This document shows positions 1,022 to 52,562 of a DNA stretch of 64,000 nucleotides, in pieces (within the stretch, counting starts at the first letter, position 1; every line of letters begins with the position of its first letter). Origin of the DNA: JAGLHV01 sp023143305 [NCBI: Clostridia bacterium] (lineage in GTDB: Bacteria; CBDUZB01; JAGLHV01). Location: positions 7,331-71,330 of the forward strand of contig DAOVVV010000008.1 in assembly GCA_030637025.1 (NCBI GenBank), in the 5' to 3' direction. The notes under the pieces were generated by a model, which saw only the letters and a list, made by a program, of their open reading frames with translations, ran no database searches and was not told the DNA's origin. A program made the translations under genes and the position numbers.

Positions 1022-1266
1022 AGTGGCAGTCGCAACCTTTAGGTTGCGTTCTCAGAGGAGATTTTCCGCAGGCTTTAGCCTGCGACTACCAAAAAGGGAG
1101 TTATGACACACTCTGTTCGCAGGAATCCATTTTGTCGACGATATCCTGGATTCCCGCTTTCGCGGGAATAACAACAATAGGACTTTGGCAATAAATTCAT
1201 AGTCTTCCGAATATTAAAAAAGGAATATGCTGAAAAATGAAAGTCAGGATCTATCTTGACACTACT
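1022..1266. mobile_element. composite palindromic repeat (B-type inside C-type ends)
   Basis: The gap after the amidotransferase gene is almost entirely repeat. It holds an AACCTTTAGGTT hairpin, the GCAGGCTTTAGCCTGC palindrome seen in other copies, and the right end of element B (GTTATGACACACTCTG, ending at 1115). That end runs directly into TTCGCAGGAAT, the second half of palindrome P. The right margin TTGACACTACT (1256-1266) matches the ends of element C. The left margin AGTGGCAG at 1022 is a poor C end, so the outer boundary is uncertain. Confidence 0.5.
1147..1171. repeat. palindrome P copy
   Basis: The sequence GATTCCCGCTTTCGCGGGAA is a GC-richer version of palindrome P, followed by TAAC instead of the usual TGAC. 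It is the right member of a P pair whose left member is interrupted by element B. Confidence 0.65.
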
Positions 1267-3380: not shown

Positions 3381-3555
3381 AGTGTCAAAAAAGGAATGGC
3401 AAGAAAAACAGAAAGAAGTTTGTAGATAAAGAGAAAATCGGGGGGTAGCCGCAGGCTTTAGCCTGCGTTATCGTTGGAGATTTTACGCAGGCTAAAGCCT
3501 GCGACTACAAAAACAGAAATCAGAACAGAAATATGCAGATATTTTTGACAATACT
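3381..3555. mobile_element. element C copy with two GCAGGC palindromes
   Basis: The left end AGTGTCAAAAAA (3381) and right end TTTTTGACAATACT (3542-3555) form an inverted repeat. Inside are two inverted copies of the GCAGGCTTTAGCCTGC palindrome (3451-3466 and 3487-3502), framed by GGTAGCC and GACTAC as in element B. The unit fills nearly the whole gap between nadE and gltB, and its right end lies 25 bp before the gltB start. The outward-facing TTGACA at 3545-3550 resembles a -35 box, but no -10 is in register. Confidence 0.5.
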
Positions 3556-9603: not shown

Positions 9604-9677
9604 ACAGCGCTGAAAGATAGAAGACACCTAAATCTCTATGGTTACATAGTGCAATTATGGGAAAAAATGGATAATTT

Positions 9678-10036
9678 GTCATTCCTGCGAAAGCAGGAAT
9701 CTAAAAAAAAAGAATAAACATGAGAGATTATTATATTTATATATTAGCCAGTAAAAAGAATGGGACATTGTATCTTGGAGTTACGAATAATCTTGTAAAA
9801 AGAGTATATGAACACAAACAAAACTTTGTAGAAGGATTTACTAAGAAATATAACATTCATAGTTTGGTATATTATGAACAGACCAATGATAGCTACAGTG
9901 CTATTCAACGCGAAAAAAGGATGAAAAGATGGAAGAGGGAGTGGAAGATAGAATTAATTGAAAGATTTAATCCTGGATGGAAAGATTTACATTATGATTT
10001 GATATAATTATGGATTCCTGCTTTCGCAGGAATGAC
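9678..10036. mobile_element. P-palindrome pair enclosing a GIY-YIG gene
   Basis: A P palindrome at 9681-9700 (preceded by GTC) and another at 10014-10033 (followed by GAC) face each other as an inverted pair. The only thing between them is the GIY-YIG gene: its start is 19 bp from the left palindrome and its stop 6 bp from the right one. The same P-pair arrangement without a gene occurs elsewhere in the window. This looks like an enzyme-carrying member of a short palindromic mobile family. Confidence 0.55.
9720..10007 (+). CDS. small GIY-YIG nuclease domain protein
   Basis: This 95-residue protein is a single GIY-YIG domain of the UvrC/YhbQ-like small type. Tyr5-Ile6-Tyr7 and Tyr18-Leu19-Gly20 stand in for the GIY and YIG strands, separated by the usual spacing. 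Arg28, His32 and Glu65 (in QREKRMKRWKREWK) fit the catalytic arginine, helix histidine and metal-binding glutamate, and the NPGWKDL tail is typical. The family cuts DNA; the target here is unknown. No partner domain is present. The ATG at 9720 has only a weak AAAAGAA ribosome site. It is tightly enclosed by inverted P palindromes, so a role in moving or maintaining those repeats is an inference worth testing. Confidence 0.85.
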   Translation: MRDYYIYILASKKNGTLYLGVTNNLVKRVYEHKQNFVEGFTKKYNIHSLVYYEQTNDSYSAIQREKRMKRWKREWKIELIERFNPGWKDLHYDLI

Positions 10037-11290: not shown

Positions 11291-11510
11291 TAGTGTCAAA
11301 AATTAGATGAAAGAATGTGAAAGGCTTACGATAAGTAATTAGAAAATAGGAGTATTTGTCATTTCCGTGTAAACGGGAATCCTTGAGTAAATATTAGCAA
11401 AAGAATAGATTCCTTCTTTCGCAGGAATGACAGAATAAAAAAAGAAAAAGCACTTATTTTAACATAAATGAAAAATCATAAACTAAATGTCAAAAATATT
11501 TGACATTACT
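11291..11510. mobile_element. element C copy between carA and carB
   Basis: TAGTGTCAAAAAT at 11291-11303 and ATATTTGACATTACT at 11496-11510 are inverted ends of a 220-bp unit. Inside is a decayed P pair (GTCATTTCCGTGTAAACGGGAA at about 11358 is shown in part; the right member ends GCAGGAATGACAG at about 11434). The unit occupies most of the 320-bp carA-carB gap. Confidence 0.5.
11486..11507. promoter_or_regulatory. perfect inverted repeat upstream of carB
   Basis: AATGTCAAA and TTTGACATT form a perfect 9-bp inverted repeat around a 4-bp AATA spacer, 86 bp before the carB start. It could be an operator, but it overlaps the right end of element C, so it may simply be the mobile end sequence. 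Confidence 0.35.
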
Positions 11511-14842: not shown

Positions 14843-14970
14843 ATGTGGTAGCCGCAACCTTTAGGTTGCGTTATCGCCGGAGATTTTCCGCAGGCTACTT
14901 GTTCGCTCCGCCTCAGGCGGATTTGGAGGAAAGCCTGTGACTACCAAAAAGGGAGTTATGACACAGTCTG
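14843..14970. mobile_element. element B copy with internal hairpin insertion
   Basis: It carries the GGTAGCCGCAACC hairpin, a GCAGGCT...AGCCTGTGACTACC pair split by a CCGCCTCAGGCGG hairpin, and the B right end ACACAGTCTG at 14961-14970. It is followed directly by TTTGCAAGAATGAC, which resembles the second half of palindrome P. The left end is not sharp. Confidence 0.5.
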
Positions 14971-15256: not shown

Positions 15257-15395
15257 AGTTCTGCAAAATACAATATTCTGTCATTTCGCTCTGCCTGAGG
15301 CAGATGATGCGGAATCTATAATGTTTTTAAATATCAATAGATTCCTGTTTTCGCAGGAATGACAAAAAAGATAAAAAGCTATTTTGCAGAAGTCT
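15257..15395 (+). mobile_element. element A copy 1 (139 bp)
   Basis: The left end GTTCTGCAAAATA (15258-15270) is the inverse of the right end TATTTTGCAGAA (15380-15391). Between them lie ATTCTGTCATT, a CTGCCTGAGGCAG hairpin, GATGCGGAATCTATAATG, an AT-rich turn and a complete P right half ending GCAGGAATGAC. A strong AAAGGAGG site follows 26 bp later, and then a start codon. Confidence 0.65.
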
Positions 15396-17980: not shown

Positions 17981-18042
17981 AATGTCACTCCTGCGAAAAC
18001 AGGAGTCTATCCCTGTAGATTCCCTCCTTCGCGGGAATGACG
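17981..18042. repeat. P-palindrome inverted pair
   Basis: ATGTCACTCCTGCGAAAACAGGAG on the left is shown here only by position (about 17982-18005). It faces GATTCCCTCCTTCGCGGGAA at 18018-18037, which is followed by TGAC. The two halves are inverted, with about 12 bp of turn, giving the minimal doublet form of the repeat, with some decay. Confidence 0.6.
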
Positions 18043-20111: not shown

Positions 20112-20616
20112 AAGATAAAGACGGTGCATTGGTTATATTGGTTTCTATTGGTTAGATTGGTTGAAAGATAAAAGAGAAAAGACAGGCATCCGCCTTAAAG
20201 ATTGGCGGACTTCCGTTTTGCTTCAGCAGTCGATAGTCCATAGACAACAAACAACAGAAAGTTATAAGTTAATAGTTATGAGTTATAAGTTAAAAGAAAA
20301 TTGAAAGACAAGAATAAAAAACAGGCACAAAGGCATCAAGGCACAGAGGCACAAAGTAAAAGACAAGACAACAGATAGTCCATAGACAACAAACAACAGA
20401 AAGTTATAAGTTACTAGTTATGAGTTATAAGTTAAAAAAAAATTGAAAGACAAGAATAAAAGACAGGCACAAAGGCATCAAGGCACAGAGGCACAAAGTA
20501 AAAGACAAGACAACAGATAAAAGATAAAAGAAAGTTATTAGTTAATAGTTATGAGTTATAAGTTAAAGAAATAAAAAACAAAGACAAAGACAAAAGAAAA
20601 AAGACGGGAGAATATA
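20112..20616. repeat. tandem direct repeat region, 142-bp unit
   Basis: This 505-bp gap contains a 142-bp unit at 20232-20373, repeated almost exactly at 20374-20515, and a partial third copy to about 20566. Each unit contains GATAGTCCATAGACAAC, two or three AGTTATAAGTTA/AGTTATGAGTTA variants and a run of GGCACAAAGGCATCAAGGCA type. The + strand is strongly A- and G-rich. No open frame is supported. A GCATCCGCC...GGCGGA hairpin lies at about 20187-20210. Confidence 0.8.
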
Positions 20617-25062: not shown

Positions 25063-25065
25063 ATA

Positions 25066-25207
25066 GACTTCTGCGGAATGACACATTCTGTCATTCCGCT
25101 CCGCCTCAGGCGGATGATGCGGAATCTATAATATTCTTAAATATCAATAAATTCCTGCTTCCGCAGGAATGACAATAAAAGGAAAAAGGTTGTTTTGCAG
25201 AACTCTT
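25066..25207 (+). mobile_element. element A copy 2 (142 bp)
   Basis: The left end GACTTCTGC and right end TTTTGCAGAACTC are inverted. Inside are CATTCTGTCATTCCGC, a CCGCCTCAGGCGG hairpin, GATGCGGAATCTATAAT and a P right half ending GCAGGAATGAC. The unit fills the gap after the radical SAM gene and ends 29 bp before the next start, with AAAGGAGGGGG between. Confidence 0.65.
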
Positions 25208-33969: not shown

Positions 33970-34197
33970 AGTTCTGCAAAATAACGCATTCTGTCATGCG
34001 GAATCTGTAATGTGTTTAAAATATCAATAGATTTCTGCTTTCCAGACTGTGTCGCAATCCCTTTTTTGGTAGTAGCAGGCTTTAGCCTGCGGCTACCACA
34101 TGAAAATATGAGTTATGACACAGTCTGTTCGCAGGAATGACTTGCCTTATCCGCCAGTCTTTAAGGCGGAGCGGGCAGGCAAACTACTTCGCAGAAA
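33970..34197 (+). mobile_element. element A copy 3 with element B inserted
   Basis: The left end AGTTCTGCAAAATA (33970) and a decayed right end CTACTTCGCAGAA (34184-34196) frame element A. Its P palindrome is interrupted at the centre by a complete 85-bp element B (34043-34127). After the right P half a CCGCCAGTCTTTAAGGCGG hairpin is present. The next start codon at 34231 follows AAAAGGAGG. Confidence 0.65.
34043..34127. mobile_element. element B, complete 85-bp copy with TTC target duplication
   Basis: The ends CAGACTGTGTC (34043-34053) and GACACAGTCTG (34117-34127) are perfect 11-bp inverted repeats. The interior is a nested hairpin of GGTAG/CTACC and GCAGGCTTTAGCCTGC. TTC occurs at 34040-34042 and again at 34128-34130; removing the unit and one TTC restores the standard P palindrome of element A. 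Confidence 0.75.
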
Positions 34198-51845: not shown

Positions 51846-51873
51846 AACGCAGGCTAAAGCCTGCGACTACCAA
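51846..51873. repeat. partial element B (GCAGGC palindrome)
   Basis: AACGCAGGCTAAAGCCTGCG followed by ACTACC is the central hairpin of element B without its ends. It lies just before the ribosome site of the rubrerythrin gene. Confidence 0.6.
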
Positions 51874-52409: not shown

Positions 52410-52562
52410 GAGTTATGCAAAATACAATATTCTGCCTGCCCGCCAGTCTTTAAGGAGGGTCATTCCGCACTTGATGCGGAATCTATAATGTTTTTAAATA
52501 TCAATAGATTCCTGCTTTCGCAGGAATGACAAAAAAGATAAAAAGCTATTTTGCAGAAGTTT
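52410..52562 (+). mobile_element. element A copy 5 (153 bp)
   Basis: The left end GAGTTATGCAAAATA and right end TATTTTGCAGAAGTTT are inverted. The interior has CCAGTCTTTAAGGAGGGTC, ATTCCGCACTTGATGCGGAA, TCTATAATG, the AT-rich turn and the complete P right half. AAAGGAGG and the start of desulfoferrodoxin follow within 30 bp. Confidence 0.65.

What the first reader, a model, noticed from the sequence alone, without database searches (positions are those of the whole stretch)
9678..10036. GIY-YIG nuclease gene enclosed by an inverted pair of P palindromes: a possible REPIN-like mobile system
The 95-aa nuclease gene has P palindromes 19 bp before its start and 6 bp after its stop, facing each other (GTC-P ... 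P-GAC). Gene-less P pairs in the same orientation occur at about 11358-11434, 17981-18042 and inside every element A. In REP/RAYT systems a transposase gene is flanked by inverted REPs and mobilises the short doublets. Here the enzyme would be a GIY-YIG nuclease instead, which would be a different chemistry. The arrangement is seen; mobilisation is inferred.
Basis: partly seen in the sequence, partly recalled or inferred. Interest (0 to 1): 0.78.

Follow-up and report, generated by a model that had tools for sequence, protein, structure and literature searches.

The report
Nuclease gene framed by its repeats
A small DNA-cutting enzyme gene sits between two mirror-image copies of a short hairpin repeat, and because the same pairing recurs in many bacteria and the gene is present at some and missing from other matching sites, the enzyme is a candidate for the missing partner of a widespread repeat family.

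Summary
P fits the CGTC-1 REPs (dRS3 in Neisseria), described in 2013 as apparently lacking a dedicated transposase. The pairing is general. Of 80 relatives chosen by protein alone, 75 have full flanks: 45 have an inward GTC-hairpin on both sides, 68 on at least one, against 3 and 37 of 303 control ORFs. At one Bradyrhizobium site read in 48 genomes, 35 carry the gene (6 broken); 13 lack it and hold another REPIN, their own REPIN, a fused solo palindrome or no REP. Sister genome G002 lacks gene and P at the window's site. Against strict dependence: P also occurs in 36 of 253 Burkholderiales genomes without the gene, flanking is weaker there, and no transposition event or clean junction was seen. 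Best reading: a REPtron-like unit of the CGTC type whose enzyme is an Ssn-like, site-specific single-strand nuclease acting on its own flanking hairpins. Ssn is recalled; its paper is not held. Cutting of P and mobilisation are inferred.

The parts
9678..9700 (+). left CGTC-type REP copy (P): GTC tag 9678-9680 plus 20-nt palindrome 9681-9700
   Evidence: folds as a DNA hairpin, -7.8 kcal/mol, z -4.9
9720..10007 (+). 95-aa GIY-YIG nuclease gene (Ssn-like by sequence; Ssn recalled)
   Evidence: conserved residues in an alignment of 36 sequences; AlphaFold2 mean pLDDT 93.9; nearest solved folds UPF0213 and Slx1
10014..10036 (-). right P copy, inverted, GAC at its outer end
11358..11431 (.). gene-less P doublet (REPIN-like), left half degenerate; the stretch around it is absent from sister genome G002
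15280..15363 (.). gene-less P heterodoublet inside element A
17984..18041 (.). gene-less P doublet
25090..25173 (.). gene-less P heterodoublet inside an element A copy
52459..52530 (.). gene-less heterodoublet: left copy with another loop, right copy identical to P
1149..1172 (-). P-like copy with GCGGGAAT stem; partner doubtful

Best explanation
P is a CGTC-type REP and the gene encodes a small GIY-YIG nuclease, most likely a site-specific single-strand nuclease of the Ssn type, whose target is the hairpin that frames it. P-gene-P is a REPtron-like selfish unit, and gene-less P doublets are its non-autonomous relatives (REPINs). Proposed mechanism: when a strand is single (lagging strand, repair, DNA uptake) P folds; the enzyme recognises GTC plus stem and nicks there; the cut is repaired or recombined against another P-bearing copy, so that a P site can gain, lose or exchange what lies between two P arms, as in homing. 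Shown here: anatomy, family-wide association, different palindromes with different enzyme branches, presence and absence at matching sites. Inferred: that this protein cuts P, that cutting drives spread, and the repair route.
For: Relatives picked by protein only: of 75 with full flanks, 45 have an inward GTC-hairpin within 200 bp on both sides and 68 on at least one, against 3 and 37 of 303 control ORFs of the same loci. Inverted-pair score >= 14 in 53 of 75 genes against 5 of 293 control ORFs. Palindromes differ between loci with both arms changed while GTC stays (listing); protein and palindrome similarity correlate (rho 0.29, p 0.001, 999 permutations). A second gene in G003, 52% identical and interrupted by a stop, is framed by GTCATTGCGA-type repeats instead. 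The N. gonorrhoeae homologue (52%) lies between CGTC-type doublets. Occupancy varies: G002 lacks gene and P between gltD and carA; A. lipoferum has doublet-gene-doublet between sufB and sufC, absent from the four other Azospirillum read; one Bradyrhizobium site has 35 of 48 with the gene and 11 changes on the flank tree (shuffled labels 11.6). In 300 Burkholderiales genomes one P pattern is in 27 of 47 gene-bearing and 36 of 253 other genomes (odds ratio 8.1, p 1.4e-9; mean copies 12.3 and 2.0). Of 12 Y1 transposase loci read in G002 and G003, none has an inverted P pair; 2 have a GTAG pair and 2 a looser GTAG-like pair.
Against: No insertion event, target duplication or sharp junction was found; junctions are blurred. 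P persists without the gene: 36 of 253 Burkholderiales genomes, four of them with 43-86 copies. G003 has 18 P copies by exact pattern but no intact window-type gene found. In 18 Bradyrhizobium genomes, copies of the type c palindrome range over 2-63 in the 8 with a type c gene at the site and 0-28 in the 10 without, with wide overlap. 20 of 47 gene-bearing Burkholderiales genomes lack the P pattern searched, and 13 of 28 loci there show an inverted pair. Hairpins facing the other way are also enriched near the genes (18 and 22 of 75 against 12 and 15 of 266). Flanks taken from different loci also match (116 of 400 at score 14), so the pair score partly reflects a shared repeat type. Two of 8 more distant GIY-YIG genes also have inverted palindromes. 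The Burkholderiales comparison is not corrected for kinship; the flank tree rests on about 1.2 kb. A hydrolytic nuclease cannot by itself insert DNA (recalled). Binding and cutting were not tested.
Confidence: 0.6

Rival explanations
1. The gene is a resident site-specific single-strand nuclease with a cell function (control of DNA uptake or recombination, as recalled for Ssn and its NTS repeat in Neisseria). P copies are its targets and perhaps its regulators. Gene and P come and go by ordinary recombination and slippage between repeats; nothing is transposed.
For: The same association data. The solo palindrome GTC-stem-loop-stem-GAC at the site in G380 looks like collapse between two P copies. 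P persists without the gene. Six of 35 copies at one site are broken, so loss is common.
Against: The gene lies between sufB and sufC in one of five Azospirillum read, which suggests gain rather than four losses. Gene-less doublets have the same inward geometry as the gene-bearing unit.
Confidence: 0.3
2. P doublets are moved by another enzyme, such as a RAYT or another transposase, and the GIY-YIG gene is a passenger caught between two P copies.
For: Y1 transposase genes exist in G002 and G003. One Y1 gene in G003 has a single P about 236 bp upstream.
Against: None of 12 Y1 loci read (of 16 matches in G002 and G003) has an inverted P pair; 2 have a GTAG pair and 2 a looser GTAG-like pair. G001, which has the window's gene and 19 P copies by exact pattern, gave no Y1 match (94% complete). 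A passenger would not be expected between such repeats in most members of one gene family.
Confidence: 0.06
3. The palindromes are only transcription terminators or mRNA hairpins that happen to bracket a short gene.
For: P folds stably and lies between genes.
Against: One copy stands 19 bp before the start codon; both copies carry the GTC tag on the outer side; 3 of 303 control ORFs of the same loci have such a pair on both sides; the stem differs between branches of the enzyme.
Confidence: 0.03

Closest known systems
Ssn, site-specific single-strand nuclease family of the GIY-YIG superfamily, with its NTS repeat in Neisseria (recalled: Chenal and colleagues, Nature Communications 2025; nothing of it seen; not held or not found)
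   Same: Small single-domain GIY-YIG protein; a Neisseria open frame is 52% identical and lies among CGTC-type repeats.
   Different: The window's protein is untested.
CGTC-tagged REPs, family CGTC-1 (dRS3 of Neisseria, RPE-6 of Rickettsia conorii), Di Nocera et al. 2013, PMC3733652
   Same: CGTC or TGTC tag, 8-bp stem starting AT, 4-nt loop, CCA-like tail, mostly head-to-head dimers (abstract, section 6 and passages seen).
   Different: That paper found no dedicated enzyme for CGTC REPs; here a gene family framed by them is found.
REP/RAYT (REPtron) and REPIN systems
   Same: A small enzyme gene framed by inverted REPs, with gene-less doublets elsewhere.
   Different: The enzyme is GIY-YIG, not a Y1 (HUH) transposase; the tag is GTC/CGTC, not GTAG; strand transfer is not expected from the enzyme (recalled).
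GIY-YIG homing endonucleases
   Same: Same catalytic domain; the gene borders its presumed target; presence varies between matching sites.
   Different: 95 aa, one domain and no intron; the target is a repeated hairpin. Similarity to homing-endonuclease models is weak (TIGR01453 E 0.001, below its cut-off; phrog_5123 E 6e-4).
UPF0213 proteins and Slx1
   Same: Nearest solved folds (UPF0213 BH0048 E 6e-4; Slx1 E about 0.01).
   Different: Identity 20-24%; Slx1 acts on branched DNA with a partner protein (titles; function recalled).

Membership tests
CGTC-1 REP family | CGTC or TGTC tag, 8-bp stem beginning with AT, 4-nt loop, tail near CCA | tested here: met
   TGTC-ATTCCTGC-GAAA-GCAGGAAT-CTA at 9677-9703 (definition read); the tail is CTA, not CCA
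CGTC-1 REP family | many dispersed copies, mostly head-to-head dimers | tested here: met
   10 places in the window, several as inward pairs; 19, 2 and 18 copies by pattern in G001, G002 and G003, reversed-pattern control 0
GIY-YIG superfamily | GIY-YIG domain with conserved Tyr, Tyr, Arg, Glu, Asn | tested here: met
   PF01541 E 4e-13; R28, E65, N84 invariant and Y7, Y18 nearly invariant in an alignment of 36 sequences; fold. The catalytic role of these positions is recalled
Ssn nucleases (recalled) | sequence relationship to the Neisseria enzyme | tested here: inconclusive
   52% identity over 90 residues to a N. gonorrhoeae open frame; that this open frame is Ssn is recalled and could not be checked
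Ssn nucleases (recalled) | sequence-specific cutting of single-stranded repeat DNA | not testable with these tools
   needs purified protein
REP/RAYT REPtron | gene framed by inverted REPs | tested here: met
   window; 45 of 75 relatives on both sides
REP/RAYT REPtron | enzyme is a Y1 (HUH) transposase and tag is GTAG | tested here: not met
   GIY-YIG protein, GTC tag; hence not a member, only works-like
mobile element | occupied and empty versions of the same site | tested here: met
mobile element | insertion with defined junctions or target duplication | tested here: inconclusive
   junctions blurred in the sites compared

The most novel reading that the evidence does not exclude
The GIY-YIG (Ssn-like) enzyme is the missing dedicated partner of the CGTC REP superfamily: it drives a REPIN-like economy in many phyla by a hydrolytic, homing-like, hairpin-directed mechanism unrelated to HUH transposition, in the same genus as GTAG REPs with their Y1 transposases.
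Probability: 0.4. Interest if true: 0.85.

Novelty: new variant of a known kind. Interest (0 to 1): 0.66.

Why it matters
The 2013 survey found CGTC REPs in five phyla and left open what spreads them. This names a concrete enzyme family, suggests the target of each enzyme from its own flanks, and supplies related genomes with occupied and empty sites for direct tests. If the enzyme drives spread, REPIN-like elements work with at least two unrelated kinds of enzyme. It would also point to a large set of single-strand nucleases with predictable targets.

Tried and rejected
Phage origin: no tblastn match at E 1e-5 in 50,697 phage records. Defence system: no PADLOC model at E 0.01. A RAYT as mobiliser of P: put behind because none of the 12 Y1 loci read has a P pair. 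Strict dependence of P on the gene: rejected. Further copies of each palindrome inside the longer loci gave a modest signal: 15 of 63 loci of 6 kb or more hold another copy of their own palindrome, against 9.7% for palindromes of other loci. The multiple alignment of the gltD-carA gap was misleading and was replaced by pairwise alignment. A self-palindrome score (13 of 53 pairs) was too crude for short stems and was replaced by a hairpin detector. In one search the best inverted pair of the Neisseria locus is a whole doublet, not a single P; settled its layout.

The 48 Bradyrhizobium genomes are not a random draw from the 117: 30 best matches plus 20 picked for split flank matches, less one weak flank and one genome met twice. 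'Intact' there means one profile hit of at least 100 bits.

Papers: PMC3733652 seen as abstract, section 6 and passages; PMC8263058, PMC12306157, PMC5082802, PMC10928387 and PMC7318869 as passages; others as search listings. In the listings I saw, no paper links GIY-YIG with these repeats: 0 papers, 5 papers, by title on restriction enzymes, 6 papers, none holding 'GIY-YIG'; one search listed 20 of 280, and the two that hold both 'GIY-YIG' and 'rayt' match an author name. This says nothing about papers that are not held, the Ssn paper among them.

Full report
What is there. The window encodes a 95-aa GIY-YIG protein at 9720-10007. A 20-nt palindrome with an outer GTC ends 19 bp before the start codon and an identical inverted copy begins 6 bp after the stop. 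P-like places number 10 in the window at up to 5 substitutions and 0 in each of 20 dinucleotide shuffles. Gene-less pairs with the same inward geometry occur at 11358-11431 and 17984-18041 and, with a differing left partner, at 15280-15363, 25090-25173 and 52459-52530.

What P is. TGTC-ATTCCTGC-GAAA-GCAGGAAT-CTA fits the published description of CGTC-1 REPs: CGTC or TGTC tag, 8-bp stem starting with AT, 4-nt loop, mostly CCA tails, mostly head-to-head dimers (PMC3733652, abstract, section 6 and passages). In Neisseria these are the dRS3 repeats. [quoted passage not shown] As single-stranded DNA, P folds with -7.8 kcal/mol (z about -5).

What the protein is. Pfam GIY-YIG, E 4e-13. In an alignment of 36 sequences R28, H32, E65 and N84 are invariant and Y7 and Y18 nearly so. 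The AlphaFold2 model (mean pLDDT 93.9) is nearest to UPF0213 and to Slx1 among solved structures. A Neisseria gonorrhoeae open frame is 52% identical. From memory, the Neisseria enzyme is Ssn, a GIY-YIG nuclease that cuts single-stranded DNA at a repeated sequence called NTS; the paper is not held or was not found, so this identity and its biochemistry are recalled, not checked.

Is the flanking general? Five of the 80 have short flanks. In the other 75 an inward GTC-hairpin within 200 bp is present on both sides in 45 and on at least one side in 68; of 303 control ORFs in the same loci, in 3 and 37. With 150 bp, inward hairpins stand upstream in 51 and downstream in 57 of 75, outward ones in 18 and 22; in 266 controls 11, 15, 12 and 15. 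An independent score, the best inverted match between the two flanks, reaches 14 in 53 of 75 genes and 5 of 293 control ORFs; flanks from different loci reach it in 116 of 400 draws, because many loci share one repeat type. Of 12 plasmid-collection loci fetched, 10 reach it, one with a non-CGTC repeat. In 28 Burkholderiales loci 13 do. Of 8 more distant GIY-YIG genes (below 65 bits) 2 do, with other palindromes. In N. gonorrhoeae the gene lies between CGTC-type doublets in a cluster of such repeats, not between two single P copies.

Do enzyme and palindrome belong together? The stems differ between loci with both arms changed and the GTC kept (listing). Protein and palindrome similarity correlate (rho 0.29, p 0.001), which shared descent alone could give. 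More telling, a second gene in sister genome G003, 52% identical to the window's and interrupted by a stop, is framed by GTCATTGCGA-type repeats rather than by P. In two Bradyrhizobium genomes with several of these genes the palindromes around them differ (G005: L139, L151; G012: L140, L145).

Is the unit labile? The window and G001 carry P-gene-P between gltD and carA; G002 has that stretch without gene or P, and G003 has other repeats in its place. The carA-carB stretch with the doublet is likewise missing from G002. Azospirillum lipoferum 4B has a doublet, the gene and another doublet between sufB and sufC; A. ramasamyi, A. oryzae, A. sp. B510 and A. thermophilum, 90-96% identical in the matched pieces, have none of it. 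At one Bradyrhizobium site, 117 of 117 genomes matched some of the query and 48 were read. Thirty-five hold the gene, 29 intact and 6 broken, and 30 of these 35 have an inverted pair of score 14 or more. Thirteen lack it: 9 with a doublet of another family, 1 with its own doublet, 1 with a fused solo palindrome GTC-stem-loop-stem-GAC and 2 with no REP. On a tree of the flanks presence changes 11 times, about as often as with shuffled labels (mean 11.6); the 48 are not a random sample. Two layouts occur: gene inside one doublet (window; Bradyrhizobium type c, with inverted ends of about 40 bp) and gene between two doublets (Azospirillum, N. gonorrhoeae, Bradyrhizobium type b).

Does P follow the gene? 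In the same 300 Burkholderiales genomes the gene (E <= 1e-20) is in 47 and one P pattern in 63. P is present in 27 of 47 gene-bearing and 36 of 253 other genomes, odds ratio 8.1, p 1.4e-9, mean copies 12.3 and 2.0. This is not corrected for kinship, and only the best 17 candidates of some genomes were scored. P without the gene is real, up to 86 copies. In 18 Bradyrhizobium genomes counts of the type c palindrome overlap widely between those with a type c gene at this site (8 genomes, 2-63) and those without (10 genomes, 0-28).

A control inside the genus. The window also holds GTAG-tagged palindromes, 8 places with 0 expected, partly as doublets. G003 has 13 and G002 3 Y1 transposase matches; G001 none. 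Of the 12 Y1 loci read (10 in G003, 2 in G002), two have a GTAG pair, two a looser GTAG-like pair, and none a P pair. So in these samples the GTAG/Y1 and the CGTC/GIY-YIG pairings coexist and do not mix.

How it most likely works. The enzyme recognises its own framing hairpin in single-stranded DNA and nicks it; repair from another P-bearing copy lets the unit enter, leave or swap at P sites. Alternatively it cuts such DNA for a cellular purpose and P turnover is a by-product. A GIY-YIG enzyme hydrolyses DNA and lacks the covalent intermediate of HUH transposases (recalled), so host repair would have to do the joining.

Verdict. The finding is real, general and bears on a stated gap in the literature. 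The analogy to REP/RAYT is good for anatomy and behaviour and fails for enzyme class and tag, so this is a REPtron-like system of another kind rather than a member. If Ssn is as I recall, the enzyme family and its repeat specificity are already known. The link to the CGTC REP superfamily and the occupied and empty sites did not appear in the listings I saw, which cover only the held library.

Noticed in passing
window 1026-1089, 3445-3508, 14848-14870, 34069-34096, 51848-51870: GTAG-tagged palindromes (8 places, 0 expected), the first two places as inverted doublets: the RAYT-type REP beside the CGTC type. In G003 two Y1 transposase genes have such a pair.
   Followed up: partly
window 15259-15391, 25065-25195, about 52410-52560: Element A looks MITE-like: the 15259 copy is about 133 bp with 12-bp inverted ends and a P heterodoublet inside; the ends are degenerate in the other two copies.
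   Followed up: no
G373:C1 near 829503-830041 and 1148502-1149546: Type c palindromes of Bradyrhizobium repeated with a period of about 170 bp.
   Followed up: no
L148, L149, L153 (Kordia and Ignavibacteriales genomes): More distant GIY-YIG genes with other inverted palindromes nearby, suggesting further enzyme-palindrome pairs.
   Followed up: no
window 20232-20571: 142-bp tandem duplication, 98% identical, plus a third partial copy.
   Followed up: no
G380, locus L220: Solo palindrome with GTC at one end and GAC at the other at a site that carries P-gene-P in relatives: a likely collapse product or pre-insertion state.
   Followed up: partly
CP090106.1 (W03) and a Legionella gresilensis genome (G007): Intact copies of the gene family beside short or stop-interrupted remnants in the same genome, as expected of an element with frequent loss.
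   Followed up: no
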